Below are positions 23,009 through 49,324 of a stretch of DNA of 64,000 bases, one piece after another. The stretch is taken from contig NZ_CP118157.1 of NCBI RefSeq assembly GCF_032878875.1, positions 992,001 to 1,056,000 on the forward strand, read 5' to 3'. The DNA is from Microbacterium sp. AB (GTDB lineage Bacteria > Actinomycetota > Actinomycetes > Actinomycetales > Microbacteriaceae). The translations under genes and the position numbers were made by a program. The notes beneath the pieces are model-generated. The model did no database searches. It worked only from the letters and a program-made list of their open reading frames with translations, and was not told where the DNA came from. The first letter of the stretch is position 1; every line of letters begins with the position of its first letter.

Positions 23009-23060
23009 GCGGCGCAGGGCGGCGGCCGGGGCCCGTGCCGTGGCGGAGAATGGAGGCACC

Positions 23061-23777: not shown

Positions 23778-23810
23778 GCCGCGGCACCGCACAGCGCCTC
23801 AGGAGCACCC

Positions 23811-25310: not shown

Positions 25311-25341
25311 CCTGCCGGGGGCTCGCCTCCGCCGCGATCGC

Positions 25342-31572: not shown

Positions 31573-32535
31573 CTAGCGCTCCGCTCGGAACTGTCGGACG
31601 TTCGCGACGATGACGGGGACGGCCGCGAGGAGGAGGACGATCGCGATCGCCGCCGCATGACCGTACTCGCGTGCCCGGAAGAGCTCGGAGTACATCCGGT
31701 TGGCGATGACGTCGGTGTTGAACGCGCCGTTCGTCATCGTGTAGACGATGTCGAACACCTTCAGCGAGAAGATCACCTGGGTGGTGTACACGACGCTGAC
31801 GGTCGGGGCGATCTGTGGAAGGGTGACGTGCCAGAACGCCCCGAACGGCCCGGTCCCGTCGAGCTGCGCGGCCTCGAGCGTCGAGGAGTCGACGTTCTTG
31901 ATGGCCGACGAGAGCATGACCATCGCGAGCCCCGTCGACATCCAGATGCCGACCGCGATCAGGGAGAACGTGGCGATCGTCGGATCGGACAGGAAGGCGA
32001 CGGTGTCGGCGCCGAGCAGATCGAGGACGGCGTTCAGCGTTCCCAGCTGGTCCGCTCCGCTCGGCTGGTAGGCGTACATCAGACGCCAGATGACGGCGGC
32101 CGCGGCGAACGAGATCGCCATCGGCAGCAGCATGACCGTCCGGATGAGCCATTCGTACCGGACCCCGTCGGCGAGCGCCGCGAGGGCCAGCCCGAGCAGG
32201 AGCGTCGTCGCCGGCAGGAGGACGAGCCAGGCGAGGTTGTTCAGCAGCACCGGAAGGACGCCCTCGCTGAACACCCACGCGTAGTTCTGCAGGCCGACGA
32301 ACCCGGTGCCGTCCGGACCCTGGAAGGACATCGCGAAGGTCTGGATCAGCGGATACAGGAGGATGCCCCCGGCGAGGACGACCGGCAGGGCCAGCCACAG
32401 CCAGGCCCGCACGCTCTCCTGACGACGATGCGGCACCGCCGTCACGATGCGCTCGGCGATCACGAGCCAGAGGACCACCGCCGCGGGCACCGCGACGACG
32501 CCCGTCACCGCGGTCACGATGTCGGAGCTGCCCAT
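31573..32535 (-). CDS. Carbohydrate ABC transporter permease (MalF type), second importer
   Basis: 320 aa. An extra N-terminal hydrophobic segment (VVAVPAAVVLWLVIAERIV) precedes the usual six helices, so it has seven predicted spans; the EAA loop is TLEAAQLDGTGPFGAFWHVTLPQI. Good ribosome-binding site (gagggagg). It is 90 bp downstream of the binding-protein gene, a gap that contains a strong hairpin. The importer belongs to the CUT1 type that handles oligosaccharides, polyols or glycerol phosphates. Confidence 0.92.
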   Translation of the reverse strand: MGSSDIVTAVTGVVAVPAAVVLWLVIAERIVTAVPHRRQESVRAWLWLALPVVLAGGILLYPLIQTFAMSFQGPDGTGFVGLQNYAWVFSEGVLPVLLNNLAWLVLLPATTLLLGLALAALADGVRYEWLIRTVMLLPMAISFAAAAVIWRLMYAYQPSGADQLGTLNAVLDLLGADTVAFLSDPTIATFSLIAVGIWMSTGLAMVMLSSAIKNVDSSTLEAAQLDGTGPFGAFWHVTLPQIAPTVSVVYTTQVIFSLKVFDIVYTMTNGAFNTDVIANRMYSELFRAREYGHAAAIAIVLLLAAVPVIVANVRQFRAER

Positions 32536-32625: not shown

Positions 32626-34014
32626 TCAGCTCCCGGCGACGAGCTCGTCGAGCGTCGCGAGATTGTCGTCGAGCGTCGACGGGTCCTGCACGAACTCGGC
32701 CGTGGTGCGATAGATCGCGGCCGTGACGTCCGACTGGCTCACCACGGTGGGGAAGGGCACGAGGTCCTCGGAGGAGAGGATCTCGGTCGCCACCTTCGCG
32801 AGGATCTCGTTCGGGTACGACGCGGCGTCCGTCCCCGTGTTCGGAGACGTCCAGTTGCCGGTCGCCGCGATGAGGTTCGCGTGCTCGGACGACGCCAGGT
32901 AGGTCATCAGGGCGGCGACCTCCGGGCGGTCCGAGAACGCGGACAGGATCGTGCCCGCGTACCCCTGGGCGTCGGCGTAGGCCGGGTCGATCGTGGGCAT
33001 CAGGAGGAAGTCGAGGTCGTCGACCGGCTCCAGCGACTCGTCCGAGGCGAGGACGATCGCGGCGGTGAACGTGCCCCAGTGCATGAGCTCGCACTGCGCG
33101 GGGTCCGTGTACATGCCGGCGCCCGCCGCTCCGGGGTCCGTGCTCAACGCGCCGTCGGGGCCGCCGCTCACGGTGCTCGCGTCGGCGACGACGGCGGAGA
33201 AGCGGTCGAACGCCGTGCGCACCTCGGGGGAGTCCCACGCGGCGTCGCCGGTGCCGAGCGCCTCGACGAAGTCCGGTCCTGCGTCCTTCAGCAGCAGGTC
33301 GAGGACGAAGTACGCGCCCGGCCATCCGGTGTTCGCGCCGGCGCTGAGCCCCATGCACCACGGCGCGGTCCCGGAGCCCGACAGCTCGTCCGCGTAGGCG
33401 GAGACCTCGTCCCACGTGACGTCCGTCCCGGTCGGGCCCTCGTAGCTGCCGGGGTCGTACCAGACCATGTAGTTGTCGACCATGCTCCACAGGCCGTAGT
33501 TGCCGCCGTCGACGGAGGTCGACGAGAGGAACCCGTCGCCGTACCCGGAGGCGAGTGCCTCCTCGCCGATCAGCTCGTTGAGATCCACGAGGTCGCCGCT
33601 CTCGGCGTAGCTGTGGACGATCCCGAGGCTGCTCGCGGCGGCGACGTCGATCGGGTTCCCCGAGTCCACGCCCGACTGGATGACGCTCTGGTAGTCCTCC
33701 GTGCCCGTGAACTCGACGGTGACTCCCGTCGCCTCCTCGAAGGGCTCGAGGGTGGCGAGGAAGCGCTCGCGCTCGCTGCCTCCCCAGGTGCCGATCATCG
33801 TGACGGTCGTCCCGTCGAGCTCGGCGCCGTCGGCGATCTCGGTCGCGCGGGCGGTGGCCGCCTCGACCAGCTCCGCGGGGAAGATGCCCGATGAGACCGA
33901 GTCGGCCTCGCCTTCGGGCGGGGCGGTGTCGGCGCAGCCGGCGAGGACGAGCGCCAGCGCGCTCGTCGCGGCGAGCGCCGGCCACACGGTCCGGCGTGCT
34001 GTGGTGCTGTGCAT
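32626..34014 (-). CDS. Sugar ABC transporter substrate-binding lipoprotein, second importer
   Basis: 462 aa. Lipoprotein signal peptide with lipobox LVLAGC (Cys about residue 27), then a type 1 solute-binding fold starting TVTMIGTWGGSERERFLATLEPFEEATGV. An ABC importer operon (this gene plus two permeases, no ATPase) follows. Strong ribosome-binding site (aaggag). Ligand unknown; the adjacent LysR-controlled oxidoreductase operon hints at a glycoside or sugar alcohol that is then oxidised. The length is slightly above average for the family because of an acidic N-terminal stretch. Confidence 0.92.
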   Translation of the reverse strand: MHSTTARRTVWPALAATSALALVLAGCADTAPPEGEADSVSSGIFPAELVEAATARATEIADGAELDGTTVTMIGTWGGSERERFLATLEPFEEATGVTVEFTGTEDYQSVIQSGVDSGNPIDVAAASSLGIVHSYAESGDLVDLNELIGEEALASGYGDGFLSSTSVDGGNYGLWSMVDNYMVWYDPGSYEGPTGTDVTWDEVSAYADELSGSGTAPWCMGLSAGANTGWPGAYFVLDLLLKDAGPDFVEALGTGDAAWDSPEVRTAFDRFSAVVADASTVSGGPDGALSTDPGAAGAGMYTDPAQCELMHWGTFTAAIVLASDESLEPVDDLDFLLMPTIDPAYADAQGYAGTILSAFSDRPEVAALMTYLASSEHANLIAATGNWTSPNTGTDAASYPNEILAKVATEILSSEDLVPFPTVVSQSDVTAAIYRTTAEFVQDPSTLDDNLATLDELVAGS

Positions 34015-34311
34015 GGGTTCTCCTTGGGGATGGGCGGGTGACGGGGACGGCGCGGTGGCGCGAAGGGGTCGTCGGCGTGCGCGCGGCACGGGTCGGGTGG
34101 GCGATCGCGGAGCGGATGTCCTCGTCCGGGGCGGGGACGTCCGCGGGGGGCCGCGCATCGCCTGTGGAGTATGCTCCGGCAAAACGAATTCACAAGGCAA
34201 GCAAGCCAAGGTGAAGCACTGCATCGGTTATTCATATGCAAGGGCGTGGAAATGACCTCGATTCGAGCATGTAACACAGACGAAAACCGCGTCCGGCGGT
34301 GAGGAGGGGAC
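34015..34311. promoter_or_regulatory. 297-bp divergent control region, importer / LysR gene
   Basis: No gene is seen here. On the minus strand a promoter for the importer fits: TTGTGA (34190-34195) and CATACT (34168-34173) spaced by 16 bp, which gives a leader of about 150 bases. Just upstream lie four copies of CAAG (34193, 34198, 34202 and 34207). The segment 34180-34275 is markedly richer in A+T than its surroundings and includes ttattcatatgcaa. These are plausible operator sites for the LysR protein encoded next door. Confidence 0.45.
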
Positions 34312-35262
34312 GTGAGCAGGCGGCCTGAGATCACGCTGACGCAGCTGCACTACTTCGTCGCGGCCGCGGAGCACCTGAGCATGACGGAGGCCGCGCGCGA
34401 CTTCTTCGTCGCGCAGTCGGCCGTGTCGGCGGCCATCGCCCAGCTCGAGCAGCTCCTCGGCGCCCAGCTCTTCATCCGGCAGCGGGCCAAGGGCATCGTG
34501 CTCACGCCGGCCGGCCTGCAGTTCCTCGGCGACGTGAGGGCGCTGCTGCTGAGCCTCGACGGCGCGCTCGACGCCGCGCGAGGCATCGACAACCAGGTGC
34601 GAGGGACGGTCCGCATCGCGTGCTTCATCACGCTCGCGCCGTTCCTGCTCCCCGAGGTGATCTCCCGTGCGCGATCGAGGCACCCCTATCTCGACATCGC
34701 CGTCGACGAGGTCGACGCGGAGGAGGGGCGCGACCTGGTGCGTGCGGGCCGGATAGAACTCCTGGTCGGATACGACTTCGCCCTCGGGGAGGACATCCGT
34801 CGCGAGACGATCGTCGAGGCGCCGCCTCACATCATCCTGCCCGTGGGCCATCCGCTCGCCGGACATGACCGGATCTTCCTGCGCGAGCTCTCGCGCGAGA
34901 AGCTGATCCTGCTCGACCTGCCGTACAGCCGGGACTACTTCCTGCGCATCCTGCACTCGGCCGGGCTCGAGCCCGACGTGCGGCACCGCTCGCGGAGCTA
35001 CGAGACCGTGCGCTCGCTCGTCGCGCACGGCCACGGCTTCTCCGTGCTCAACCAGCGCCCGGCCCATGCGCTGACCTACGACGGCTTCGAGGTGTCGGCG
35101 ATCCCGATCGCCGACGACGCCCCGGCGCTGCAGGTCGTGCTCGCGTCCCTGCGCGACGTGCGGCAGAGCGCCCGCGCCCGGGCCGTCGCCGGGATCATCC
35201 GGGAGGTCGCACGGGAACTGTTCGACGGAAAACGCGCGCGGGGGACGGGAACGCCCGGATGA
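34312..35262 (+). CDS. LysR family transcriptional regulator
   Basis: 316 aa. The winged helix-turn-helix (LTQLHYFVAAAEHLSMTEAARDFFVAQSAVSAAIAQLE) is followed by the linker helix and a periplasmic-binding-protein-like effector domain (about 95-295). GTG start with gaggagggg upstream. It stands between the second sugar importer (divergent) and the nine-gene oxidoreductase operon (same direction), and a LysR-type ATC-N9-GAT box lies just downstream at 35298-35312. It is therefore the prime candidate regulator of both. Confidence 0.92.
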   Translation: MSRRPEITLTQLHYFVAAAEHLSMTEAARDFFVAQSAVSAAIAQLEQLLGAQLFIRQRAKGIVLTPAGLQFLGDVRALLLSLDGALDAARGIDNQVRGTVRIACFITLAPFLLPEVISRARSRHPYLDIAVDEVDAEEGRDLVRAGRIELLVGYDFALGEDIRRETIVEAPPHIILPVGHPLAGHDRIFLRELSREKLILLDLPYSRDYFLRILHSAGLEPDVRHRSRSYETVRSLVAHGHGFSVLNQRPAHALTYDGFEVSAIPIADDAPALQVVLASLRDVRQSARARAVAGIIREVARELFDGKRARGTGTPG

Positions 35263-35431: not shown

Positions 35432-36715
35432 ATGTCGAGCCAAGAGATCGAAGTCGTCGTCGTCGGGGCGGGACAGGCCGGGGTGGCGATGAGCGAGCAC
35501 CTGAGCGGCCACGGCGTGCCGCACGTCGTCCTGGAGCGCCATCGCATCGCCGAGAGCTGGCGCTCCGCGCGGTGGGACTCGCTCGTCGCGAACGGTCCCG
35601 CCTGGCACGATCGGTTCCCCGGCCTGGAGTTCGGCGACGTCCGCCCCGACGGCTTCGCGTCGAAGGAGCGGGTCGCGGACTACTTCGCCGCCTACGCGGA
35701 GAAGATCGGCGCGCCGGTCCGGTGCGGCGTCGAGGTGACCTCCGTGCGCAGGAACGCAGGCCGGCCGGGCTTCCGCGTGGAGACGTCGGACGGCGTCGTC
35801 GACGCGCGCTACGTCGTCGCGGCGACGGGCGCGTTCCAGCGTCCCGTCATCCCCCCGGTCGTGCCGGACGGCGCCGGGGTCCGCCAGATCCACTCCAGCG
35901 CGTACCGCAACCCGCGGCAGCTGCCGGACGGCGCCGTCCTCGTCGTCGGGGCGGGATCGTCGGGCGTGCAGATCGCCGACGAGATCCAGAGGTCCGGCCG
36001 GCAGGCGTACCTCTCCGTCGGCCCGCACGACCGGCCCCCGCGGAGGTACCGCGGACGCGACTTCGTCTGGTGGCTCGGCGTCCTGGGAAAGTGGGACGCC
36101 GCTGCGCCCTCCCCCGGCGCGGAGCACGTCACGATCGCGGTGACCGGCGCGGACGGCGGCCACACCGTGGACTTCCGCGCGCTCGCCGCCGGCGGCGTCC
36201 GGCTCGTCGGGAGGACCGTCTCGTTCGACGAGGGCGCCGTGCGCTTCGCGCCGGACCTCCGCGACAACATCGCGAGGGGCGACGCGAACTACCTGTCCCT
36301 GCTCGACGAGGCCGACGCGTACGTCGGGCGCAACGGCCTCGACCTCCCGGAGGAGCCCGGGGCCCGCGTCCTCGGGCCGGACCCGGACGGCGTGACCGAC
36401 CCCGTCGTCGAGCTCGACCTCGAGGGCGCGGGCGTCGGCGCGATCGTCTGGGCGACCGGCTTCGCGGCCGACTACGGCTGGCTGCAGGTCGACGCCTTCG
36501 ACGAGCACGGCAGGCCGAGGCATCAGCGCGGCGTCTCGTCCGAGCCCGGCGTCTACTTCCTGGGCCTGCCCTGGCAGTCGCGACGGGGATCGAGCTTCAT
36601 CTGGGGGGTCTGGCACGACGCCAAGCACCTCGCCGACCACATCATGATCCAGCGGGGCTACCTCGCCCACGAGCCCGTGGACGCTCTCGTCCCCGGAAGG
36701 GAGAACGCCCGATGA
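35432..36715 (+). CDS. FAD/NADPH-dependent monooxygenase-like oxidoreductase (CzcO/FMO type)
   Basis: 427 aa with two Rossmann motifs: VVVGAGQAGVAMSEHL (FAD, residues about 8-23) and VLVVGAGSSGVQIADEI (NADPH, about 165-185). The motif ESWRSARWDSLVANGPAWHDRFPG after the first fold is typical of the flavin-monooxygenase group often annotated as CzcO or flavoprotein involved in K+ transport. ATGFAADYGWL near the C-terminus is the second FMO-type motif. It would hydroxylate or N-/S-oxygenate an organic substrate. First gene of the large operon; its stop overlaps the RidA start (ATGA). Confidence 0.88.
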   Translation: MSSQEIEVVVVGAGQAGVAMSEHLSGHGVPHVVLERHRIAESWRSARWDSLVANGPAWHDRFPGLEFGDVRPDGFASKERVADYFAAYAEKIGAPVRCGVEVTSVRRNAGRPGFRVETSDGVVDARYVVAATGAFQRPVIPPVVPDGAGVRQIHSSAYRNPRQLPDGAVLVVGAGSSGVQIADEIQRSGRQAYLSVGPHDRPPRRYRGRDFVWWLGVLGKWDAAAPSPGAEHVTIAVTGADGGHTVDFRALAAGGVRLVGRTVSFDEGAVRFAPDLRDNIARGDANYLSLLDEADAYVGRNGLDLPEEPGARVLGPDPDGVTDPVVELDLEGAGVGAIVWATGFAADYGWLQVDAFDEHGRPRHQRGVSSEPGVYFLGLPWQSRRGSSFIWGVWHDAKHLADHIMIQRGYLAHEPVDALVPGRENAR

Positions 36716-37140
36716 GCACGCCGACGCACACGCGCATCCGCCCCTTCAACACGATGGACACCTACCCCGAGCAGAACCTCGACAACGACCTGTGCCAGGC
36801 CGTCGTCGCGAACGGGGTCGTCTACCTGCGCGGGCAGATCGGCCAGGACCTCGACACCCGTGAGAGCGTCGGCGTCGGCGACGTCGAGGCGCAGGCCGAG
36901 AAGGCGATGGCCAACGTCGACCTGCTGCTGCGCGAGGCGGGCAGCGGCCTGCGCGACATCGTGAAGGTCGTCGTCTACCTCACCGACATCCGCTACCGCG
37001 AGCCCGTGTACCGGGTGATGGGCCGCTGGCTGAAGGGCGTCCACCCGGTCTCGACCGGACTCGTCGTCGACGCGCTCGCCCGTCCGGAGTGGCTCGTCGA
37101 GATCGACGCGACCGCCGTCGTGAGCGGGGAGGCGTCGTGA
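36712..37140 (+). CDS. RidA/YjgF family protein
   Basis: 142 aa. The fold is recognisable by NGVVYLRGQIGQDL, the VDLLLREAGSGLRDIVKVVVYLTD core and the Arg in YREPVYRVMGRWL; the C-terminal ALARPEWLVEIDATAVV stretch closes the trimer site. RidA proteins hydrolyse reactive enamine/imine intermediates, and related subfamilies act as aminoacrylate or aminomuconate deaminases. Overlapped by four bases on each side (ATGA with the monooxygenase, GTGA with DUF1028). Its presence implies that an imine or enamine forms in this pathway. Confidence 0.9.
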   Translation: MSTPTHTRIRPFNTMDTYPEQNLDNDLCQAVVANGVVYLRGQIGQDLDTRESVGVGDVEAQAEKAMANVDLLLREAGSGLRDIVKVVVYLTDIRYREPVYRVMGRWLKGVHPVSTGLVVDALARPEWLVEIDATAVVSGEAS

Positions 37141-37811
37141 CCTTCTCGCTCGCCGCGCGCGATCCGGACAGCGGCGCCTTCGGGATGGTGCTCAGCTCGT
37201 CGAGCCCGGCGGTGGCCGCGCGCTGCCTCCACCTGCGCCCCCGCGTGGGCGCCGTCGCCTCCCAGAACGTCACCGACCCGGCGCTGGGCCCGCTGCTGCT
37301 CGACCTGCTGGAACGGGGTGCGACGGCGGAGGAGGCGCTCGCGCGTGCCGTGGCGGACGAGCCGTTCCCGCAGCACCGCCAGCTCACGGTGGTCGACGCC
37401 GCGGGCCGCACGGCGGTGTTCTCGGGCGAGCGCGCGCTCGGCACCCCGGCCACCGCGACCGGTCGTCAGGCGGCCGCCGCCGGCAATCTGCTCGCGGGAG
37501 CCCACGTGCCGCGCGCCATGATCGACGCCTACGAGGCCAGCACCGCCGCGACGTTCGAGGAACGGCTGCTCGACGGCTTCCTCGGCGCCGTCGCGGCGGG
37601 CGGCGAGGCGGGACCCGTCCGCTCGGCGGGCCTCGCCGTCGTCGCGGACGCCTCGTGGCGCGTGACCGACCTCCGCGTGGACGACGCCGACGACCCAGCG
37701 GGCGAGCTCGCCCGCCTCGTGGCGCTCTGGCTGCCGCGGAAGCACGACTATCTCGTGAGAGCCCTCGATCCCGAGGCGGCGCCCTCCTACGGCGTGCCCG
37801 GAGACCTCTGA
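37137..37811 (+). CDS. DUF1028 domain protein (Ntn-hydrolase-like)
   Basis: 224 aa. It starts FSLAARDPDSGAFGMVLSSSSPAVAARC, followed by GAVASQNVTDP and the long helical second half with DGFLGAVAAGGEAGPVRSAGLAVV. These are the hallmarks of DUF1028, a family with an Ntn-hydrolase-like fold whose reaction is not established. GTG start overlapping the RidA stop (GTGA), and its stop overlaps the M20 start (TGATG). Constant company with RidA and an M20 hydrolase suggests an amide- or amidine-type substrate. Confidence 0.86.
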   Translation: MTFSLAARDPDSGAFGMVLSSSSPAVAARCLHLRPRVGAVASQNVTDPALGPLLLDLLERGATAEEALARAVADEPFPQHRQLTVVDAAGRTAVFSGERALGTPATATGRQAAAAGNLLAGAHVPRAMIDAYEASTAATFEERLLDGFLGAVAAGGEAGPVRSAGLAVVADASWRVTDLRVDDADDPAGELARLVALWLPRKHDYLVRALDPEAAPSYGVPGDL

Positions 37812-38971
37812 TGCCGCGGGCGGTCGCGTTGAAGGCCCGCGTCGCGGGGCACGTCGACGACGGGCTCGCGGCGCTGCTCGGCATCAGCCGCCGGCTGCAC
37901 GCCCACCCCGAGACGGCGTGGCGGGAGCATGCGTCGGCGGCCCTGCTCGCGGGGGAGCTGGAGGCCCGCGGCTTCGCCGTCGAGCGCGGCGCCGCCGGCC
38001 TGCCGACGGCCTTCGTCGCCGAGGCGGGGACGGGTCCCGTCGCGGTCGGCCTCGTCGCCGAGTACGACGCGCTCCCGGGGCTCGGGCACGCCTGCGGGCA
38101 CAACGTCATCGCCGCGGCCGCCGTCGGAGCCGCCGGCGCCCTCGCCGCGGTGGCGGGCGAGCTGGGCATCCGCGTGCGGGTGATCGGCAGCCCCGCCGAG
38201 GAGGGCGGCGGAGGCAAGATCCCGCTGCTCGACGAGGGACGCTTCGACGATCTCGCGCTCGCGATGATGGTCCACCCGGGCCCCGCCGACGCCGTCTACG
38301 CCCGGCCGCGCGCCGTCGCCCACGTCGACGTGTCCTATCGCGGCGTCACGTCCCACGCGGGCGCCTACCCCCACCTCGGCCGGAACGCGGCCGACGCCTT
38401 CGCCGTGGCCCAGGTCGCCATCGGCCTGCTCCGGCAGCAGCTGCCGCCCTCCGTGCGCGTGCACGGGATCGTCACGGAGGCCGGCACCGCGCCCAACGCC
38501 ATCCCGGACGTCGCGAAGGGCTCCTGGTACGTCCGCGCCGACACGCTCGGGGAGCTGGCCGGCGTCTTCGAGCGGGTGCGGGCGTGCTTCGAGGCGGGAG
38601 CCCTCGCCACCGGCTGCGAGGGGGAGCTCATCGAGACCAGCCCCCGGTACGCGGAGTTCCGCAACGACGAGCAGCTGGCCGGGCTCTTCGCCGCCAACGC
38701 CGCCGCTCTCGGCCGCGACATGGACCTCGCGGAGGACGGGCCGCGGGGCATGGCGACCGCCTCCACCGACATGGGCAACGTCTCGCAGCGGGTACGGGCC
38801 ATCCACCCGTACCTGGGGATCGACTCGACGCCCGCCGTCAACCACCAGCCCGCCTTCGCCGACGCGGCCGCCGGCCCCGCCGCCGACCGTGCCGTACGGG
38901 ACGGCGCGGTGCTGCTGGCGCAGACGGCGATCGACGCCGTGCTCACCCGACCATCCACGCAGGAGGACTGA
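37811..38971 (+). CDS. M20 family metallohydrolase (M20D amidohydrolase type)
   Basis: 386 aa. Metal ligands of the M20 fold are visible: HAHPETAW (first His), GLVAEYDALPGLGHACGHNV (Asp and His bridging the metals), GSPAEEGGGGK (Glu-Glu) and the dimerisation lid with SHAGAYPHLGRNAADAF. This is the M20D layout used by N-acyl amino-acid hydrolases, aminobenzoyl-glutamate hydrolase and auxin-conjugate hydrolases. It should cleave an amide bond in the cytosol. Overlaps DUF1028 by one base; the aldehyde dehydrogenase starts two bases after its stop. Confidence 0.9.
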   Translation: MPRAVALKARVAGHVDDGLAALLGISRRLHAHPETAWREHASAALLAGELEARGFAVERGAAGLPTAFVAEAGTGPVAVGLVAEYDALPGLGHACGHNVIAAAAVGAAGALAAVAGELGIRVRVIGSPAEEGGGGKIPLLDEGRFDDLALAMMVHPGPADAVYARPRAVAHVDVSYRGVTSHAGAYPHLGRNAADAFAVAQVAIGLLRQQLPPSVRVHGIVTEAGTAPNAIPDVAKGSWYVRADTLGELAGVFERVRACFEAGALATGCEGELIETSPRYAEFRNDEQLAGLFAANAAALGRDMDLAEDGPRGMATASTDMGNVSQRVRAIHPYLGIDSTPAVNHQPAFADAAAGPAADRAVRDGAVLLAQTAIDAVLTRPSTQED

Positions 38972-38972
38972 C

Positions 38973-40481
38973 ATGCCCACCCGAGCCGAATGGGAGCAGC
39001 TCGCCCGCACCGTCCAGCCGCGCCGACGGGCGTTCATCGACGGCGCCTTCGCCGACGCCGCGGACGGCGACGAGTTCGAGACCGTCAACCCCGCCACGGG
39101 AACCGTCCTCGCGCGCGTCGCACGAGGCCGGTCGGCCGACGTCGACAGGGCCGTGGCGGCGGCGCGCCGCGCCTTCGACGCCGGAGCCTGGTCGCGGGCG
39201 GCGCCCGCGCACCGCAAGGCCGTCCTGCTGGCGCTCGCCGAGGCCGTCCGGGCGCACGCCGACGAGCTCGCCGTGCTCGACACGCTCGACGGCGGCAAGC
39301 TCATCGCCGACACCTCCGCCGTGGACGTCCCCGGCTCCGCGGCCATCCTGCAGTGGTACGCGGAGTCGGTCGACAAGCAGTACGGGGAGGTCGCCCCGAC
39401 CGCCCCCGCCGACCTGGCCATCGTCACCCGCGAGCCCGTGGGGGTCGTCGGCGCCGTCGTGCCGTGGAACTACCCGCTCGAGATGGCGATCTGGAAGCTC
39501 GCCCCCGCGCTCGCCGCCGGCAACAGCGTCGTCCTCAAGCCCGCCGAGGAGTCGCCGCTCTCGGCGCTGCGCCTGGCCGAGCTGGCGGCGGAGGCGGGCC
39601 TGCCCGACGGCGTGCTGAACGTCGTGCCCGGATACGGCGAGGAGGCCGGTCAGGCCCTCGGCCGTCATCCCGACGTCGACGTGATCGCGTTCACGGGATC
39701 GACCTCCGTCGGCAAGCTGTTCCTGCGCTACGCGGGCGAGTCGAACATGAAGCAGGTCTGGCTGGAGTGCGGCGGCAAGAGCGCCAACCTCGTGTTCGCC
39801 GACGCCGGCGACCTGGACCTCGTGGCGGACAGGGCCGTGACGGGCATCTTCGGATGCGCGGGGCAGGTGTGCTCGGCCAACTCGCGGCTGCTCGTCGAGG
39901 AGTCGATCGCCGACGACCTGCTGGAGCGCATCGCGGTGCGCGCCGCGGCGCTGCGGGTCGGCGACCCGCTCGACCCCGGATCCACGATGGGGCCGCTCAT
40001 CAGCCGCCGCCAGCTCGATCGCGTCCTCGGCCGCATCGAGTCCGGCCGCTCCGAGGCGACCCTCGCGTTCGGCGGCGGCCGCGTCCATGAGGACAGCGGC
40101 GGGTTCTACGTCGAGCCCACGGCCTTCCGCGACGTGCCGTCCGAGGCCGCGATCTCTCGCGAGGAGGTGTTCGGGCCGGTGCTGGCGGTCTCGACCTTCC
40201 GCGCCGAGGAGGAGGCGATCGGCCGCGCCAACGCGAGCGAGTACGGGCTGGCGGCGTCCGTGTTCACCGACAGCATCCATCGCGCCCGGCGCGTGGCCCG
40301 TGCCCTGCACGCGGGCACCGTCTCGGTCAACACCGTCGACGCGCTCGACGTCACGACCCCCTTCGGCGGCGTGAAGCAGTCCGGGTTCGGACGCGACCTC
40401 TCGTTGCACGCGCTCGACAAGTTCACGTCGCTGAAGACCACGTGGTTCGCAGACCCGACGGCCGCCCCTCAGGAAGGATGA
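38973..40481 (+). CDS. NAD(P)-dependent aldehyde dehydrogenase
   Basis: 502 aa, standard ALDH length. Motifs: VPWNYPLEMAIWKLAPAL (catalytic Asn in PWN), FTGSTSVGK (coenzyme), the general-base Glu in LECGGKSAN and the nucleophilic Cys in GCAGQVCSANSR. The sequence is closest to betaine-aldehyde/gamma-aminobutyraldehyde-type dehydrogenases. aggagg lies five bases before the ATG, between overlapping neighbours. It probably oxidises the aldehyde produced by the GMC oxidoreductase encoded next. Confidence 0.93.
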   Translation: MPTRAEWEQLARTVQPRRRAFIDGAFADAADGDEFETVNPATGTVLARVARGRSADVDRAVAAARRAFDAGAWSRAAPAHRKAVLLALAEAVRAHADELAVLDTLDGGKLIADTSAVDVPGSAAILQWYAESVDKQYGEVAPTAPADLAIVTREPVGVVGAVVPWNYPLEMAIWKLAPALAAGNSVVLKPAEESPLSALRLAELAAEAGLPDGVLNVVPGYGEEAGQALGRHPDVDVIAFTGSTSVGKLFLRYAGESNMKQVWLECGGKSANLVFADAGDLDLVADRAVTGIFGCAGQVCSANSRLLVEESIADDLLERIAVRAAALRVGDPLDPGSTMGPLISRRQLDRVLGRIESGRSEATLAFGGGRVHEDSGGFYVEPTAFRDVPSEAAISREEVFGPVLAVSTFRAEEEAIGRANASEYGLAASVFTDSIHRARRVARALHAGTVSVNTVDALDVTTPFGGVKQSGFGRDLSLHALDKFTSLKTTWFADPTAAPQEG

Positions 40482-40483
40482 GC

Positions 40484-42028
40484 ATGGCCTACGACACCCC
40501 CGACATCGTCGACTACCTCGTGCTCGGCGGCGGCACCGCCGGCTGCATCGTCGCGGCGCGCCTGAGCGAGGACCCCGACGCGAGCGTCGGCCTCGTGGAG
40601 GCCGGGCCCACCGACGCCGACGAGCCCCGCGCGAACTCCATCCGCCGCTGGGCCGAGATGCTGGAGGGGGAGTACGACCTCGACTACCGCAGCGTCCCCA
40701 ACGAGCGCGGCAACTCCTCCATCCGCCAGGCACGCATGCGCATCATGGGCGGCTGCTCCACGGCGAACACGATGATCGCGTGGCGTCCCCTCCGCGGGGA
40801 CATGGACCAATGGGTCGCGCTCGGGGCCGACGGCTGGGACTACGACACCGTGAGCTCCTGCTACGACCGCATCCTGGCGCCCGTCACGCCGATCCCGCCC
40901 GAGGACCGCAACCCCTACCTGCAGGACGTCATCGACTCCGCGACAGCGGCGCTGGGCGTGCCGGTGCGCGAGACGTGGAACGACGCCGAGGTCCGCAACG
41001 GCGCCGGGTACTTCGAGATCGGCTACGACCCCCTGACCAACCAGCGCTCGTCGGCGTCGTACGCGTACATCCGCAGCGGCGCCGATCGGCGCCCGAACCT
41101 CCACATCACCCTCGGCGGGCTCGTGGAGCGGCTGATCGTGGAGGACGGCCGAGCGGTCGGCGCGGCGGTGCGCACCGCGGAGGGCGTGCGGCAGCTGCGT
41201 GCGCGGCGCGAGGTGGTCGTCAGCTGCGGCGCGATCGACAGCCCCGCGCTGCTCATGCGGTCGGGGATCGGCCCGCGCGCCGTGCTGGCGGCCGCGGGCG
41301 TCGACGCGCTCGTCGACCTTCCCGGCGTCGGCGAGAACCTGCAGGACCACGCCGAGGGCCTCCTCGTCTGGGAGGCGCGTTCCGAGCGCTCCGCGATCAG
41401 CGCCACAGGCTGGGACGCCGGCTACGTCGTGACGGTCGACGACGACGCGTCCGTCCCCGACGTCTCCACGCACATCCCGCTGGAGACCTGGGGCGTGCAC
41501 GCCGAGCGCGAGGGCACGGCGCTGCCCGCGAACACCGTGTCGCTCGTGCCCAACGTCGCCAAGCCCCGCAGCCGCGGTCGCGTGTGGATCACTTCGCCCT
41601 CGGCCGACGACGCCCCCTCGATCGACTACCGCTCCTTCACCGATCCCGACGGCCGCGACGAGCGGATGCTCGTGGCCGGTGCGCGCCTGGCGCGCAGGGT
41701 CGCCCAGCGGGAGCCGTTCGCCTCCCATCTCGTGCGCGAGGTGTTCCCGGGGCCCGAGGCGCAGAGCGACGAGGAGCTGTCGGCGGCACTGCGCGCCACC
41801 CATCAGACCGTCTACCACGTGTCGTGCACCTGCCGGATGGGCGCGGACGACGACCCGGCGGCCGTGCTCGACGCCCGGCTGCGCGTGCGAGGAGTCGACG
41901 GGCTGCGCGTCGTGGACGCGTCCTCGTTCCCCACGCTCTCGGCGCTCAACCCCGTCGGCCTCATCATGTCCGTCGCCGAGCGCGCCGTCGACCTCATCCG
42001 CGAGGACGCCGCGGAGGCCGCCCGATGA
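40484..42028 (+). CDS. GMC family FAD-dependent alcohol dehydrogenase/oxidase (choline-dehydrogenase-like)
   Basis: 514 aa. The N-terminal FAD fold LVLGGGTAGCIVAARLSED, the GMC signature region IMGGCSTANTMIAWR, the second signature SCGAIDSPALLMRSGIG and the catalytic His-Asn pair (YHVSCTCRMG, SALNPVG) are present. It oxidises a primary alcohol to an aldehyde; the neighbouring ALDH could take this to the acid. Start at 40484 was preferred over 40478 because aggaagg (40471-40477) is six bases before it. The stop overlaps the next gene (ATGA). Electron acceptor (oxygen or a carrier) is not evident. Confidence 0.9.
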   Translation: MAYDTPDIVDYLVLGGGTAGCIVAARLSEDPDASVGLVEAGPTDADEPRANSIRRWAEMLEGEYDLDYRSVPNERGNSSIRQARMRIMGGCSTANTMIAWRPLRGDMDQWVALGADGWDYDTVSSCYDRILAPVTPIPPEDRNPYLQDVIDSATAALGVPVRETWNDAEVRNGAGYFEIGYDPLTNQRSSASYAYIRSGADRRPNLHITLGGLVERLIVEDGRAVGAAVRTAEGVRQLRARREVVVSCGAIDSPALLMRSGIGPRAVLAAAGVDALVDLPGVGENLQDHAEGLLVWEARSERSAISATGWDAGYVVTVDDDASVPDVSTHIPLETWGVHAEREGTALPANTVSLVPNVAKPRSRGRVWITSPSADDAPSIDYRSFTDPDGRDERMLVAGARLARRVAQREPFASHLVREVFPGPEAQSDEELSAALRATHQTVYHVSCTCRMGADDDPAAVLDARLRVRGVDGLRVVDASSFPTLSALNPVGLIMSVAERAVDLIREDAAEAAR

Positions 42029-43602
42029 CCTCCCCCGAGTTCGACGTGCTCATCGTCGGCGGAGGCCTGATGGGCGCCGGTCTCGCACGAGCCGTGCGCG
42101 ACGCCGATCCCGACGCGCGCATCGCGATCGTCGAGGCCGGACCCGCGATCGGCGGGACCCGAGGGCAGCACCTGCACGAGATCGACGACCCCGAGCTGTG
42201 GCGCCGCTACAACCGCGGCCTTCGGGCGGGCACGCAGGCGCACTACGTCGGCGCGGCCGCGGCATCCGATCCCGGCTCGACCGCGGCCCACGCGGAGCCG
42301 GGCGTCTACCGCCTCGGCTCCTTCGGCGAGGACGCCGACGAGCTCCCCGGAGCCGCGATCGCGTGGAACTCCGGCGGCATGGGAGCCCACTGGACCGCCG
42401 CCACCCCGACGCCGTACGGCGCCGAGGTGTTCGCCTTCGGCGGCCGGGACGAGTGGGACGCCGATCTGGCGCGCGCCCGGGAGCTGCTGCAGGTGCATCC
42501 CGACCCCTACGGGCAGGATCCGGCCGCAGAGCCCGTGATCGCCCGCCTGCGCGAGCTGTTCGATCCGGTCAGCGCCCCCGGCCGCGGCGTGCAGGCCATG
42601 CCGATGGCCGTGCAGCCGGTGGGCGACGCCGGACCGCACGGGCCGCTGCGCCGCACGAGTCCCCGCGTGATCTTCCCGCCGATCGCCGACGGCTCCGACC
42701 CGGCGTTCACGATGCTCTCCGACTCGCTGTGCCTCGGTCTCGTCATGGACGGCTCGACGGCGACGGGCGCGCGCGTCCGGCACCTGCCGACCGGCGGGGA
42801 GCGGGAGGTCACGGCCGCGCGGGTCGCCGTGTGCGCCGACGCGATGCGCACGCCCCAGCTGCTGTTCGCCTCGGGCATCCGGCCGCCCGCCCTCGGCCGG
42901 CGTCTCAACGAGCACGTCTTCGTCTCCGGGCGCGTGCTCGTGGACGCCGCCGAGGTGCCGCTCGACCTGGCCGCGCTGCGCCCGACGCTCGCGGGCGAGT
43001 GGCACGTGGCGTCCCACTGGCTGCCGCACAGCGGAGCGCGTCAGCCCTTCCAGGGGCAGATCATGAGCGCGCTCGTGCTCGACGAGGACCTGCGCACGCC
43101 GCTCGGCTACTTCGTCCAGCTGTCCTGGTACGTCCCGACGGAGACGCGGGAGGAGAACCGGGTGGAGTTCTCGGAGACGGAGACGGACGTCGCCGGGCTG
43201 CCGCGCATGCGCGTGCGCTTCTCGTACTCCGACGCCGACCGGCGGATGATCGCCGAGGCCCGGGCGGCGCAGCGCCGGGCGGGGGAGGCGCTCGGAGACT
43301 TCGTCCCGGGGCGCGACTCGGAGGTGCTGGCACCGGGCTCGTCGCTGCACTACACGGGCACGGTGCGGATGGGCCTCGACCCGGAGACGAGCGTGTGCGA
43401 CCCGGACGGCCGCGTCTGGGGCACCGACAACGTGTACGTCGCCGGCAACGGCGTCATCCCCACGCCGATGACCGCCAACACGACGCTCACGGGGATGGTC
43501 ACGGTCGTCCGGGCGGCGCGGGCCGTGGCGAGCGCGGCGGAGGCCTCCGACGGGCTCCCCGCGCGGGGGCGCGCCGCCGGTCCGGGCGGCACGAGTCCTT
43601 GA
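42025..43602 (+). CDS. GMC flavoenzyme resembling pyranose 2-oxidase / glycoside 3-oxidase
   Basis: 525 aa. FAD fold VLIVGGGLMGAGLARAV at the N-terminus. The segment GGMGAHWTAATP matches the pyranose 2-oxidase FAD-linkage motif (G-G-M-x-x-H-W-T-x-A-T-P; in fungal enzymes this His carries covalent FAD). Near the C-terminus SLHYTGTVRMG and TANTTLTG supply the catalytic His and Asn in pyranose-oxidase order. Relatives in Arthrobacter and Microbacterium oxidise sugars or C-/O-glycosides at C2 or C3. It is joined to the other GMC gene by ATGA overlap. Its position in an operon next to a sugar importer fits a glycoside substrate. Exact regioselectivity is inferred only. Confidence 0.82.
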   Translation: MTSPEFDVLIVGGGLMGAGLARAVRDADPDARIAIVEAGPAIGGTRGQHLHEIDDPELWRRYNRGLRAGTQAHYVGAAAASDPGSTAAHAEPGVYRLGSFGEDADELPGAAIAWNSGGMGAHWTAATPTPYGAEVFAFGGRDEWDADLARARELLQVHPDPYGQDPAAEPVIARLRELFDPVSAPGRGVQAMPMAVQPVGDAGPHGPLRRTSPRVIFPPIADGSDPAFTMLSDSLCLGLVMDGSTATGARVRHLPTGGEREVTAARVAVCADAMRTPQLLFASGIRPPALGRRLNEHVFVSGRVLVDAAEVPLDLAALRPTLAGEWHVASHWLPHSGARQPFQGQIMSALVLDEDLRTPLGYFVQLSWYVPTETREENRVEFSETETDVAGLPRMRVRFSYSDADRRMIAEARAAQRRAGEALGDFVPGRDSEVLAPGSSLHYTGTVRMGLDPETSVCDPDGRVWGTDNVYVAGNGVIPTPMTANTTLTGMVTVVRAARAVASAAEASDGLPARGRAAGPGGTSP

Positions 43603-43679
43603 CACGGCGTTTCGCCGGGGTTTGACTGCGGGTACGGCCCGGAGACACCGGGCGCGGGTTCGACGAGGAGCTTCGCGAG

Positions 43680-44870
43680 ATGGCGACCGTGCTGTGCGTC
43701 CTGTACCCCGATCCGACCGACGGTCATCCGCCGACCTACGCAAGGGACTCGATCCCGGAGATCGCCCGCTATCCGGGCGGGGAGACGACGCCGAGCCCGC
43801 GCGGGATCGACTTCGTGCCCGGACAGCTGGTCGGCAGCGTCTCCGGCGGCCTCGGGCTCCGTCCGTACCTCGAGAAGGCGGGGCACCGGTTCGTCGTGAC
43901 CAGCGACAAGGAGGGCCCCGACAGCGAGTTCGAGCGGCTCCTCCCCGAGGCCGACGTGGTGATCTCGCAGCCGTTCTGGCCCGCGTACCTGGACGCCGAT
44001 CGCCTCGCGAAGGCACGACGTCTCCGGCTCGCCGTCACGGCGGGCGTCGGATCGGACCACGTCGATCTCGGAGCCGCCATCGAGCGGGGGATCACCGTCG
44101 CCGAGGTCACGTACTCGAACTCTCTCAGCGTCGCCGAGCACGCGGTGATGCAGATCCTCGCGCTGGTCCGCGACTACCTGCCGGCGCACGACATCGTCCG
44201 GGCGGGCGGATGGAACATCGCCGACGCCGTGAAGCGCAGCTACGACATCGAGGGCATGGAGGTCGGGGTCGTGGCCGCCGGGCGCATCGGACGGGCGGTG
44301 CTCGAGCGCCTGAAGCCGTTCGGGGTGCGCCTGGCCTACTTCGACAAGCACCGGCTCCCGGCCGATGTGGAGAAGGAGCTCGGCACGACCTACCACGACG
44401 ACGTCAGAGCGCTCACCGCCGCCGTCGACGTGCTGTCGATCCATGCTCCGCTGCAGCCGGAGACCTACCGCCTGTTCGACGACGAGCTGATCGGGACGAT
44501 GCGGCGTGGGTCGTACATCGTGAACACGGCCCGGGCGGCGATCGTCGACCGGGACGCCGTCGTGCGCGCACTGGAGTCGGGAAGGCTCGCGGGCTACGCC
44601 GGCGACGTGTGGTACCCGCAGCCGCCGCCGGCCGACCATCCGTGGCGGTCGATGCCGCACGAGGCGATGACGCCGCACATGTCGGGTTCGTCGCTGTCCG
44701 CCCAGGCCCGGTACGCGGCGGGGACGCGCGAGATCCTCGAGGCGTTCTTCGACGGCACGCCGATCCGCGAGGAGTACCTCATCGCCGCGGGCGGCGCTCT
44801 CGTCGGTGCCGGCGCGCACGCGTACACCGCGGCCGCCGGCCAGGCGAGCCCCGGAAGCACGGGGCGCTGA
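43680..44870 (+). CDS. fdh: NAD-dependent formate dehydrogenase (D-2-hydroxyacid dehydrogenase fold)
   Basis: 396 aa, closely resembling Pseudomonas sp. 101 FDH along its whole length. FDH-specific features: the N-terminal extension VLCVLYPDP and YPGGETTPSP, the QPFWPAY substrate loop, Asn of TYSNSLSVAEH, Arg of NTARA, and the catalytic Gln/His pair with MTPHMSG. The Asp in YFDKHRLP selects NAD over NADP. It oxidises formate to CO2, making NADH. Only one Cys is present (residue 6), where Pseudomonas FDH has several. It follows the GMC gene by 77 bp and precedes the formaldehyde dehydrogenase by 73 bp. Ribosome-binding site gaggag. Confidence 0.95.
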   Translation: MATVLCVLYPDPTDGHPPTYARDSIPEIARYPGGETTPSPRGIDFVPGQLVGSVSGGLGLRPYLEKAGHRFVVTSDKEGPDSEFERLLPEADVVISQPFWPAYLDADRLAKARRLRLAVTAGVGSDHVDLGAAIERGITVAEVTYSNSLSVAEHAVMQILALVRDYLPAHDIVRAGGWNIADAVKRSYDIEGMEVGVVAAGRIGRAVLERLKPFGVRLAYFDKHRLPADVEKELGTTYHDDVRALTAAVDVLSIHAPLQPETYRLFDDELIGTMRRGSYIVNTARAAIVDRDAVVRALESGRLAGYAGDVWYPQPPPADHPWRSMPHEAMTPHMSGSSLSAQARYAAGTREILEAFFDGTPIREEYLIAAGGALVGAGAHAYTAAAGQASPGSTGR

Positions 44871-44943
44871 GAAGGCGGGCCGCTGCCGATCGCACAGGCC
44901 ATCCGGGCGCGATCGCGACCGGATACGCGAAGGAGAGGACACC

Positions 44944-46167
44944 ATGACAACCAACCGAGCGGTCGCGTACAAGGGACCCGGAAAGGTCGAGGTCGTCGAT
45001 ACCCCGTACCCGGAGTTCGAGCTCAAGGACGGTCCGGGAGTGAATCCCGCCAACATCGGGCGCAAGGTGCCGCATGGCGCGATCCTGCGCACCGTCAGCA
45101 CGAACATCTGCGGCTCCGACCAGCACATGGTGCGTGGGCGCACGACGGCTCCCGCGGGGCTCGTGCTCGGCCACGAGATCACCGGCGAGGTGATCGAGGT
45201 CGGACCGGACGTCGAGTTCGTCCAGGTCGGGGACATCGTCTCGGTGCCGTTCAACATCGCCTGCGGCCGCTGCCGCAACTGCAAGGAGGGCAAGACCGGC
45301 ATCTGTCTGAACGTCAACCCCGACCGCCCCGGCAGCGCATACGGCTACGTCGACATGGGCGGATGGGTCGGCGGTCAGGCGGAGTACGTGCTCGTCCCGT
45401 ACGCGGACTGGAACCTGCTGAGATTCCCCGACCGCGACCAGGCGCTCGAGAAGATCCTCGACCTGACGATGCTGTCGGACATCTTCCCCACGGGCTTCCA
45501 CGGCGCCGTCACCGCGGGCGTGGGCCCGGGATCGACCGTCTACATCGCCGGAGCCGGGCCGGTGGGCCTCGCCGCCGCCGTCGGCGCCCAGCTGCTGGGA
45601 GCCGCCGTCGTCATCGTGGCCGACCTCAACGAGGACCGCCTGGCTCAGGCGCGCTCGTTCGGCGCCGAGACGGTGAACGTCGCCGAGGGCGACCCCCGCG
45701 ACCAGATCGAGCAGCTCCTGGGCGTCCCCGAGGTCGACTCCGCCGTCGACGCGGTGGGCTTCGAAGCGCGCGGGCACGGAGCCGAAGCCGCGCACGAGGC
45801 CCCGGCGACGGTGCTCAACTCGCTGTTCGACGTGACCGCGGCCGGCGGCGCGGTCGGCATCCCCGGTCTCTACGTGACGGGAGACCCGGGCGGCGTCGAC
45901 GACGCGGCCAAGGTCGGATCGCTGTCGCTGCGGCTCGGTCTCGGCTGGGCGAAGTCGCTGTCCTTCACGACCGGGCAGTGCCCCGTCATGAGGTACAACC
46001 GGCAGCTGATGCAGGCGATCCTCCACGACAGGGTCCAGATCGCGAAGGCCGTGAACGCGACGCCGATCTCCCTCGACGACGCGCCGCAGGGGTACGCGGA
46101 CTTCGACCAGGGCGCGGCGCGGAAGTTCGTGCTCGACCCGAACGGCTACATCGCGGACGCGGCATGA
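44944..46167 (+). CDS. fdhA: Glutathione-independent formaldehyde dehydrogenase (zinc, NAD)
   Basis: 407 aa medium-chain dehydrogenase of the Pseudomonas putida FdhA group. Catalytic zinc ligands CGSDQH and GHEITGEV, structural zinc lobe CGRCRNCKEGKTGIC, and the group-specific insertion SAYGYVDMGGWVGGQAEYV. The tight NAD-binding fold GAGPVGLAAAVGAQL and long insert with APATVLNSLFDVTAAGGAVGIPGLY are as in dismutating formaldehyde dehydrogenases. It converts formaldehyde to formate, which the preceding FDH oxidises further. Strong ribosome-binding site (aaggagagga). Last gene of the run. Confidence 0.93.
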   Translation: MTTNRAVAYKGPGKVEVVDTPYPEFELKDGPGVNPANIGRKVPHGAILRTVSTNICGSDQHMVRGRTTAPAGLVLGHEITGEVIEVGPDVEFVQVGDIVSVPFNIACGRCRNCKEGKTGICLNVNPDRPGSAYGYVDMGGWVGGQAEYVLVPYADWNLLRFPDRDQALEKILDLTMLSDIFPTGFHGAVTAGVGPGSTVYIAGAGPVGLAAAVGAQLLGAAVVIVADLNEDRLAQARSFGAETVNVAEGDPRDQIEQLLGVPEVDSAVDAVGFEARGHGAEAAHEAPATVLNSLFDVTAAGGAVGIPGLYVTGDPGGVDDAAKVGSLSLRLGLGWAKSLSFTTGQCPVMRYNRQLMQAILHDRVQIAKAVNATPISLDDAPQGYADFDQGAARKFVLDPNGYIADAA

Positions 46168-46701: not shown

Positions 46702-46741
46702 TGCAGAACAAGTGAACTTTTCGCAACCGAGGGTTTAGGTT
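46702..46741 (+). promoter_or_regulatory. LysR autoregulatory region, imperfect dyad and promoter
   Basis: tgcagaacaagt (46702-46713) and acttttcgca (46715-46724 with offset) form an imperfect dyad in an A+T-rich patch between two divergent genes. TAGGTT (46736-46741) lies eight bases before the GTG start of the LysR gene with a 17-bp gap to a weak -35 (TGAACT, 46713-46718). The dyad overlaps the -35, as expected for self-repression. Confidence 0.45.
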
Positions 46742-46749
46742 TGCTGAAT

Positions 46750-47670: not shown

Positions 47671-47764
47671 GAGCGTCCGCACCAGGTAAAAGGCGTGTTA
47701 CGAGGCGCCGGTCCGCCCGTCGATCCCTTATCGTTCAAGTGACCTATTAGCGACCGGAGCCACT

Positions 47765-49312: not shown

Positions 49313-49324
49313 GGGGCTGAGACG

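What the first reader, a model, noticed from the sequence alone, without database searches (positions are those of the whole stretch)
35432..46167. Nine-gene oxidoreductase operon ending in a formaldehyde-to-CO2 module, of unknown substrate
Seen: monooxygenase, RidA, DUF1028, M20 hydrolase, ALDH, GMC alcohol oxidase, pyranose-oxidase-like GMC, formate dehydrogenase, formaldehyde dehydrogenase. The first seven are joined by overlaps or gaps of two bases or less; the last two follow at 77 and 73 bp. A LysR gene and a sugar importer sit just upstream. Known: RidA removes imines, FMOs oxygenate N or C, M20D cleaves amides, FdhA and FDH burn formaldehyde. Inference: a methylated amine, ether or glycoside is imported, oxidised and demethylated, and the released formaldehyde is oxidised to CO2 for NADH. 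I know of no characterised pathway with this exact combination.
Basis: partly seen in the sequence, partly recalled or inferred. Interest (0 to 1): 0.72.

Follow-up and report, generated by a model that had tools for sequence, protein, structure and literature searches.

The report
Imidazole-breakdown operon with alcohol oxidases
A Microbacterium carries the known bacterial genes that break the imidazole ring of histamine down to aspartate, but with alcohol-oxidase genes where most of its relatives have an amine oxidase, which suggests that it eats an imidazole alcohol (possibly sugar-linked) rather than histamine.

Summary
The interpretation changes.

Genes 1-4 (FMO, RidA, DUF1028, M20) with the aldehyde dehydrogenase correspond to the published histamine (Hin) pathway, HinF-L-H-G plus HinD: imidazole-4-acetate to aspartate plus formate. 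FMO, RidA and DUF1028 occur together in 93 of 99 FMO-anchored loci; 39 of the 99 also hold a histamine dehydrogenase-type protein or a copper amine oxidase.

The window differs at the entry step. Its genome has no copper amine oxidase. GMC1 belongs to a choline-oxidase-derived clade; in a search of 198 Microbacterium genomes its orthologues lie at Hin loci in 3 of 3. It lost the flavin-linking His99 but kept Glu312 and the aromatic cage, and the genome has a separate canonical choline oxidase. I infer that GMC1 oxidises an imidazole alcohol (histaminol).

GMC2 and a divergent sugar-type importer are conserved at this locus in one relative only. FDH fits formate release. FDH and FdhA are linked to the operon in 0 of 98 other loci, so the formaldehyde module is not supported.

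Verdict: a new variant of a known pathway. By-products: DUF1028 as a Thr2 Ntn-type hydrolase of this pathway; M20D and ArgE exchanging places as deformylase.

The parts
30710..31555 (-). ABC importer permease, CUT1-like (nearest GlcU, UgpE, MalG)
   Evidence: NCBIfam, below cut-offs; PF00528; syntenic in G079
31573..32535 (-). ABC importer permease, CUT1-like (nearest GlcT, UgpA, MalF)
   Evidence: NCBIfam, below cut-offs; PF00528; syntenic in G079
32626..34017 (-). solute-binding protein of the importer (identified by eye from its lipoprotein-like start and its place; no Pfam family at E<=0.01)
   Evidence: homologue (66% over 78%) divergent from the operon in G079
34312..35262 (+). LysR regulator; best PDB matches 3fzv and 6m5f (recalled: HinK, PA0218)
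   Evidence: a LysR homologue (26-64%) lies in 68 of the 80 loci
35432..36715 (+). flavin monooxygenase, HinF type: predicted imidazoleacetate 4-monooxygenase
   Evidence: 69-81% identity over 80 loci; separated from 18 TIGR04046-like paralogues with support 1.0
36712..37140 (+). RidA, HinL type enamine/imine deaminase
   Evidence: PF01042; in the locus with FMO and DUF1028 in 93 of 99
37137..37811 (+). DUF1028, HinH type; Ntn-type hydrolase with N-terminal Thr2 (inferred)
37811..38971 (+). M20D amidohydrolase at the HinG (N-formylaspartate deformylase) position
   Evidence: TIGR01891 over cut-off; 53 loci have it, 37 have ArgE, none both
38973..40481 (+). aldehyde dehydrogenase, HinD-like role (imidazoleacetaldehyde to imidazoleacetate)
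   Evidence: PF00171; an ALDH at 45% or more in 54 of 99 loci
40478..42028 (+). GMC1: choline-oxidase-derived alcohol oxidase; predicted imidazole alcohol (histaminol) oxidase
42025..43602 (+). GMC2: pyranose oxidase / glycoside 3-oxidase-like flavoprotein
   Evidence: 8qve 293 bits, 7dve 253, 7qf8 238; 84% orthologue in G079 at the same place
43680..44870 (+). NAD-dependent formate dehydrogenase; fits formate from the M20 step; not conserved at this locus
   Evidence: NF005750 over cut-off; 6 of 198 genus genomes
44944..46167 (+). glutathione-independent formaldehyde dehydrogenase; not part of the conserved operon
   Evidence: TIGR02819 over cut-off; over cut-off in 51 of 198 genus genomes

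Best explanation
The operon is a variant of the histamine/imidazoleacetate (Hin) catabolic operon in which alcohol oxidation takes the place of amine oxidation as the entry. GMC1 oxidises an imidazole alcohol, most simply imidazole-4-ethanol (histaminol), to the aldehyde (inferred). The ALDH makes imidazole-4-acetate. The FMO (HinF) oxygenates the ring with NADH and O2. The resulting imidazolone acetate opens to N-formimino-aspartate, which RidA (HinL) and the Thr-dependent DUF1028 hydrolase (HinH) convert to N-formyl-L-aspartate (which of the two does what is not settled). M20D (HinG position) releases aspartate and formate. FDH then turns formate into CO2 and the NADH that HinF needs; that last link is seen in this strain only. 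Aspartate goes to fumarate through an ammonia-lyase encoded elsewhere in the genome. The importer and GMC2 deliver or prepare the substrate; their exact roles are open.
For: Gene order FMO-RidA-DUF1028-ArgE in Pseudomonas loci equals hinF-L-H-G (PAO1 PA5393-PA5390), and the published annotations match: FAD-monooxygenase EC 1.14.13.5, enamine deaminase, amidase, amidase EC 3.5.1.8. FMO+RidA+DUF1028 are together in 93 of 99 loci. Of the 99, 21 carry a histamine dehydrogenase-type protein (one member tested: 6de6, 1229 bits), 18 a copper amine oxidase, 22 an aspartate ammonia-lyase. In Microbacterium, 8 of 9 other Hin loci (about 20 kb each) have a copper amine oxidase; the window genome has none and no histamine dehydrogenase (best 30%). 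GMC1 orthologues exist in 3 of 198 genus genomes, all 3 at Hin loci (Fisher p=1.3e-4 with the window's genome included). All 10 clade members read lost His99 but kept W61, E312, W331, H466 and N510, whereas 6 of 6 genus paralogues are canonical choline oxidases, the window genome's own one beside an ALDH and a BCCT transporter. A GMC protein lies beside a cytosine/purine-type permease in 8 loci, 3 of them Acetobacter loci with no amine oxidase or histamine dehydrogenase in the fetched stretch. An aspartate ammonia-lyase-like gene is in the genome (57%).
Against: HinF-L-H-G sequences of P. putida U were not held, so the identity rests on order, annotation and Pseudomonas homologues. Seven of the 10 GMC1 members, those outside the genus, were found because they lie at Hin loci, so only the genus search (3 of 3) tests the linkage. 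GMC1 shares its locus with a copper amine oxidase (L007, L008, L032, G169) or histamine dehydrogenase (L077) in 5 of 10 cases, so it is not a simple replacement. The two copper amine oxidases tested match phenylethylamine oxidase best in the PDB, so their histamine specificity is not shown. E312 and the cage could bind other cations; position 357 is Val in two members. 52 of 99 loci show none of CuAO, HADH or GMC in the fetched stretch. A HinC-type aminotransferase elsewhere in the genome was not searched for. GMC2 and the importer are conserved at the locus in one relative only.
Confidence: 0.6

Rival explanations
1. An ordinary histamine operon: histamine enters through an aminotransferase (HinC type) encoded elsewhere in the genome, and the GMC genes are accessory or serve another alcohol.
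For: P. putida and PAO1 use HinC, an aminotransferase, at a separate locus. GMC1 co-occurs with amine-oxidising enzymes in 5 of 10 loci.
Against: 8 of 9 other Microbacterium Hin loci carry a copper amine oxidase in the locus. The window has two GMC oxidases whose reading frames overlap within the operon instead.
Confidence: 0.23
2. The first reader's module: a methylated amine, ether or glycoside is demethylated and the formaldehyde is burned by FdhA and FDH.
For: FDH and FdhA are present, adjacent and co-directional, with no terminator found before them.
Against: None of the nine genes is a demethylase by family; 0 of 98 other loci link FDH/FdhA to the operon; in G079 they are on another contig. 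Formate is explained by the HinG step.
Confidence: 0.05
3. GMC1 and the ALDH are a second choline-to-betaine pair that happens to sit in the operon.
For: GMC1's nearest solved relatives are choline oxidases (367-372 bits) and the quaternary-ammonium cage is largely kept.
Against: His99 is lost in all 10 clade members read; the same genome has a canonical choline oxidase with ALDH and BCCT; GMC1 orthologues occur only at Hin loci in the genus search.
Confidence: 0.07

Closest known systems
Histamine (Hin) catabolic pathway of Pseudomonas putida U / P. aeruginosa PAO1 (hinFLHG, hinD, HinK)
   Same: FMO-RidA-DUF1028-M20-superfamily order, ALDH, LysR; imidazoleacetate to aspartate
   Different: M20D instead of an ArgE-like HinG; no HinC or HinA in the operon; GMC1, GMC2, a sugar-type importer and FDH are added
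Actinobacterial histamine loci (Brevibacterium, PMC6467879; Microbacterium relatives L154-L161 with copper amine oxidase)
   Same: FMO-RidA-DUF1028-M20-ALDH core and LysR
   Different: the window has no copper amine oxidase and no APC permease at the locus, but GMC oxidases and an ABC importer
Choline oxidase (2jbv; recalled: Arthrobacter globiformis)
   Same: GMC1 keeps W61, E312, W331, H351, H466, N510
   Different: His99 to Ala, Ser101 to Thr, Phe357 to Trp; genomic context Hin, not betaine
Pyranose oxidase / glycoside 3-oxidase group (8qve, 7qf8; the latter's activity recalled) and 6'''-hydroxyparomomycin C oxidase (7dve)
   Same: GMC2 aligns over nearly its full length; the HWT, LHY-His and Asn motifs are kept
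   Different: located in a Hin operon; substrate unknown

Membership tests
Hin imidazoleacetate-to-aspartate pathway | adjacent FMO, RidA, amidase (DUF1028) and M20-superfamily deformylase in the order F-L-H-G | tested here: met
Hin imidazoleacetate-to-aspartate pathway | FMO falls in the clade that holds the Pseudomonas loci of hin order, not with the TIGR04046 (MSMEG_0569) paralogues | tested here: met
   window FMO 366 bits, below the TIGR04046 cut-off of 498; bipartition of 99 versus 18 with support 1.0
Hin imidazoleacetate-to-aspartate pathway | direct sequence match to P. putida U HinF (AWA45229) | not testable with these tools
   that record was not held; homologues from Pseudomonas species are 72-73% identical to the window FMO
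Hin imidazoleacetate-to-aspartate pathway | ArgE-like HinG | tested here: not met
   an M20D protein stands at this position; M20D (53 loci) and ArgE (37 loci) never share a locus
Hin histamine pathway (entry step) | histamine oxidase, histamine dehydrogenase or HinC aminotransferase | tested here: inconclusive
   no copper amine oxidase and no histamine dehydrogenase in the genome; HinC-type aminotransferases not searched
Choline oxidase (GMC1) | His99 for covalent FAD and the W61/E312/W331/F357 cage (roles recalled) | tested here: not met
   His99 is Ala; cage kept except Phe357 to Trp
Ntn-hydrolase (DUF1028) | N-terminal Thr/Ser/Cys nucleophile and similarity to Ntn-hydrolase structures | tested here: met
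Glycoside 3-oxidase / pyranose oxidase (GMC2) | catalytic His and Asn plus the HWT motif (roles recalled) | tested here: met
   aligned residues kept; activity not testable
Formaldehyde-to-CO2 module | FDH/FdhA conserved with the upstream operon | tested here: not met
   0 of 98 other loci at 50% identity or more

The most novel reading that the evidence does not exclude
The operon degrades a sugar-linked or polyhydroxylated imidazole alcohol (for example a histaminol glycoside). The CUT1-like importer takes it up, the glycoside-oxidase-like GMC2 oxidises the sugar so that it can be split off (in G079 a xylose-isomerase-like TIM barrel sits between importer and operon), GMC1 oxidises the freed imidazole alcohol, the Hin enzymes yield aspartate and formate, and FDH recycles the NADH. 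No such pathway showed in the paper listings.
Probability: 0.2. Interest if true: 0.65.

Novelty: new variant of a known kind. Interest (0 to 1): 0.45.

Why it matters
It places DUF1028, a Pfam family of unknown function, in a defined reaction sequence with a predicted nucleophile. It shows that two branches of the M20 superfamily fill the same deformylase slot. It predicts a choline-oxidase-derived enzyme clade for an imidazole alcohol, a fusel alcohol of histidine that yeasts are known to make (recalled). That would link amine, alcohol and possibly glycoside routes into one ring-cleavage pathway, and it is testable with a few purified enzymes and simple growth assays. For annotation, it corrects 'putative flavoprotein involved in K+ transport', the source name of many of the 120 listed FMO relatives.

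Tried and rejected
Rejected: (1) formaldehyde module (see rivals). (2) FMO as a member of TIGR04046: below cut-off and a separate clade. (3) Choline pathway for GMC1. (4) FDH as Hin-linked in the genus: 2 of 11 Hin genomes against 4 of 187 others, p=0.037, but p=0.23 without the window's own genome. (5) Presence of a copper amine oxidase somewhere in the genome is weak evidence, since 94 of 198 genus genomes have one; 9 of 11 Hin genomes against 85 of 187, p=0.027. Only its position in the locus is informative.

Led nowhere: text searches for DUF1028 (0 papers); (0 papers); histaminol (19 papers, none about bacterial breakdown by its title); imidazole ethanol and related terms (listing only). 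The Rid family paper PMC4433059 has no mention of histamine or imidazole (term search of its main text). The xylose-isomerase-like protein of G079 has only a 28% partial match in the window genome.

Errors of mine: the binding protein was given one frame off, so its NCBIfam result is void; the Pfam results in the right frame are, both without a family. In one search window:47839-49320 was also the wrong frame; the right one is. In one search the rooting of the FMO tree failed; the bipartition was tested. The gene picker (third-position GC) misses genes, GMC2 of the window among them.

Rows dropped before counts: the set of 99 loci is L002-L081 (80), L082-L089 (8 plasmid regions picked by hand from the 40 rows listed of 930 matching records), L154-L162 (9), G079 contig C29 and the window. 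Left out were L001 and L090-L100 (short copies of loci already counted) and the paralogue loci L101-L118. DUF1028 was sought in 98 loci (the 99 less the window); 6 have none, and Thr2 holds in the other 92. Loci are cut at contig ends and at about 10 kb of flank.
Full report
Observation. FMO, RidA, DUF1028, M20, ALDH, GMC1 and GMC2 are joined by overlaps of 1-4 bases or a gap of 1. FDH and FdhA follow at 77 and 73 bases. A simple scan found no terminator on this strand. The window is G000:C1:992001-1056000 of a 3.64 Mb single-contig genome. A contig of the same-genus genome G079 has the length (51453) given for a record named Microbacterium sp. 18062, so I take the genus to be Microbacterium.

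What the core is. A scan with the FMO returned 80 loci from Actinobacteria, Mesorhizobium and other alphaproteobacteria, Burkholderiales, Pseudomonas and Acetobacter with 69-81% identity. With 8 plasmid regions, 9 further Microbacterium loci and G079 and the window this makes 99 FMO-anchored loci. FMO, RidA and DUF1028 occur together in 93 of 99, with FMO and DUF1028 midpoints within 5 kb in 90 of those 93. An M20D protein is present in 53, an ArgE-like protein in 37, both in none, neither in 9. Annotated plasmid neighbours include aspartate ammonia-lyase, acetylornithine deacetylase (argE), cytosine permease, aldehyde dehydrogenase and primary-amine oxidase.

Link to a known pathway. The order FMO-RidA-DUF1028-ArgE in Pseudomonas loci is that of hinF-hinL-hinH-hinG, listed for PAO1 as PA5393, PA5392, PA5391, PA5390 and for P. 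putida U as cluster hin2 (hinFLHG) in PMC8231116 (passages read). That review says the hin genes had been reported absent from sequenced Gram-positive bacteria; the actinobacterial loci here, like the Brevibacterium report, show otherwise. PMC6467879 (section 'Histamine metabolism' read) lists HinF as FAD-monooxygenase EC 1.14.13.5, HinL as enamine deaminase, HinH as amidase, HinG as amidase EC 3.5.1.8 and HinI as aspartate ammonia-lyase, and reports that three Brevibacterium strains with homologues grow on histamine; its authors note that the role of the genes still has to be verified. PMC2542419 (one passage read) suggests imidazole-4-acetate to imidazolone acetate to N-formyl-L-aspartate in P. 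aeruginosa. That formate leaves at the HinG step follows from EC 3.5.1.8 (formylaspartate deformylase, recalled).

Independent support. In 20 loci of the clustering (21 of 99 by the later count) there is a TMADH-family protein. One member tested matches histamine dehydrogenase 6de6 at 1229 bits and 3k30 at 884 bits. Copper amine oxidases stand in 18 of 99 loci; two were tested and match phenylethylamine oxidase best in the PDB, so their substrate is not shown. The window's LysR has 3fzv and 6m5f as its best PDB matches; that these are HinK is recalled. The window FMO scores 366 bits against TIGR04046 (cut-off 498), while the genome's own paralogue at C1:973255 scores 584. A FastTree of 117 sequences splits 99 core FMOs from 18 paralogues with support 1.0.

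The entry step. In the genus, 11 of 198 genomes including the window's have the core FMO at 70% or more. Of the 9 other than G000 and G079, 8 carry a copper amine oxidase in the fetched stretch (about 20 kb) and 7 of these also an APC permease; the ninth (L162) has neither. The window genome has no copper amine oxidase at all and no histamine dehydrogenase. G079 has two copper amine oxidases, on other contigs. Instead, the window and G079 have GMC1 and GMC2 in the operon and a divergent importer.

GMC1. Its closest solved relatives are choline oxidases. At twelve choline-oxidase positions, all 10 members read (window, L002, L007, L008, L031, L032, L077, L078, G079, G169) have Ala, Gly or Val at 99 and Thr at 101, and keep W61, H310, E312, W331, H351, H466 and N510; position 357 is Trp in eight and Val in two. 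The 6 genus paralogues, including one in the window's own genome, have the full choline-oxidase set (residue roles recalled). The own paralogue lies beside an ALDH and a BCCT transporter. Seven of the 10 members were found because they lie at Hin loci; the unbiased test is the genus search, in which orthologues at 70% or more exist in 3 of 198 genomes, all at Hin loci (Fisher p=1.3e-4, with the window included). GMC proteins stand next to a cytosine/purine-type permease in 8 loci, among them three Acetobacter loci that have no amine oxidase or histamine dehydrogenase in the fetched stretch. I infer an imidazole alcohol as substrate. Against a simple swap: GMC1 shares its locus with a copper amine oxidase (L007, L008, L032, G169) or histamine dehydrogenase (L077) in 5 of 10 cases.

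GMC2 and the importer. GMC2 aligns over nearly its full length with 8qve, 7dve and 7qf8. Of 198 genus genomes 64 have some relative at E<=1e-60, but only G079 has an 84% orthologue, in the same place; the next best is 52%. The window genome's 52% paralogue lies beside a xylose-isomerase-like TIM barrel and a family-1 binding protein. G079 has a TIM barrel of the same Pfam family between operon and importer. This makes a sugar-containing substrate possible, no more.

FDH and FdhA. DNA synteny with G079 ends within GMC2. FDH is in 6 of 198 genus genomes and FdhA over its cut-off in 51 of 198. In G079 the two genes lie about 5 kb apart on contig C1, away from the Hin operon on C29. In 98 other loci neither gene occurs at 50% identity or more; flanks are about 10 kb and some loci end earlier. 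FDH can use the formate from the HinG step and return NADH to HinF; this is inference. FdhA has no evident task in this pathway.

Shown by sequence here: gene content, conservation, clade and residue facts, absence of copper amine oxidase and histamine dehydrogenase in the genome. Taken from papers: the pathway and its intermediates. Inferred: substrates of GMC1, GMC2 and the importer, the M20D step, and the use of FDH.

Noticed in passing
G000:C1:973255-974445 (about 18 kb before the window; L163:8249-9439): A 43% paralogue of the FMO scores over the TIGR04046 (MSMEG_0569, nitrilase-cluster flavoprotein) cut-off.
   Followed up: partly
window 22166-28734: By eye, a peptide-type ABC importer (binding protein, permeases, ATPases) with an alpha/beta hydrolase and a DUF1684 protein beside it; only the last two were tested by HMM.
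   Followed up: partly
window 46735-50323: A second LysR gene, a family-5 binding protein (PF00496) and, by eye, a permease follow after FdhA.
   Followed up: partly
window 32626-34017: The binding protein of the importer matches no Pfam family at E<=0.01 although its permeases are CUT1-like.
   Followed up: partly
L152:17935-18510 and L002:9314-9955: In G079 and Puerhibacterium a flavin reductase gene (PF01613) stands directly upstream of the FMO; I saw none there in the window.
   Followed up: partly
L222:598-1941: In G169 a histidinol-dehydrogenase-family protein (PF00815) and, by eye, a short-chain and a zinc alcohol dehydrogenase lie close to GMC1.
   Followed up: partly
L017-L082, 17 loci read: Mesorhizobium and Acetobacter Hin loci carry other GMC oxidases (33-35% identical to GMC1) without the choline-oxidase cage, so alcohol oxidases may have joined this pathway more than once; two of the 17 are cut short.
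   Followed up: partly
L013, L025, L029, L033, L054, L076: Six loci have the core FMO without RidA and DUF1028 in the fetched stretch.
   Followed up: no
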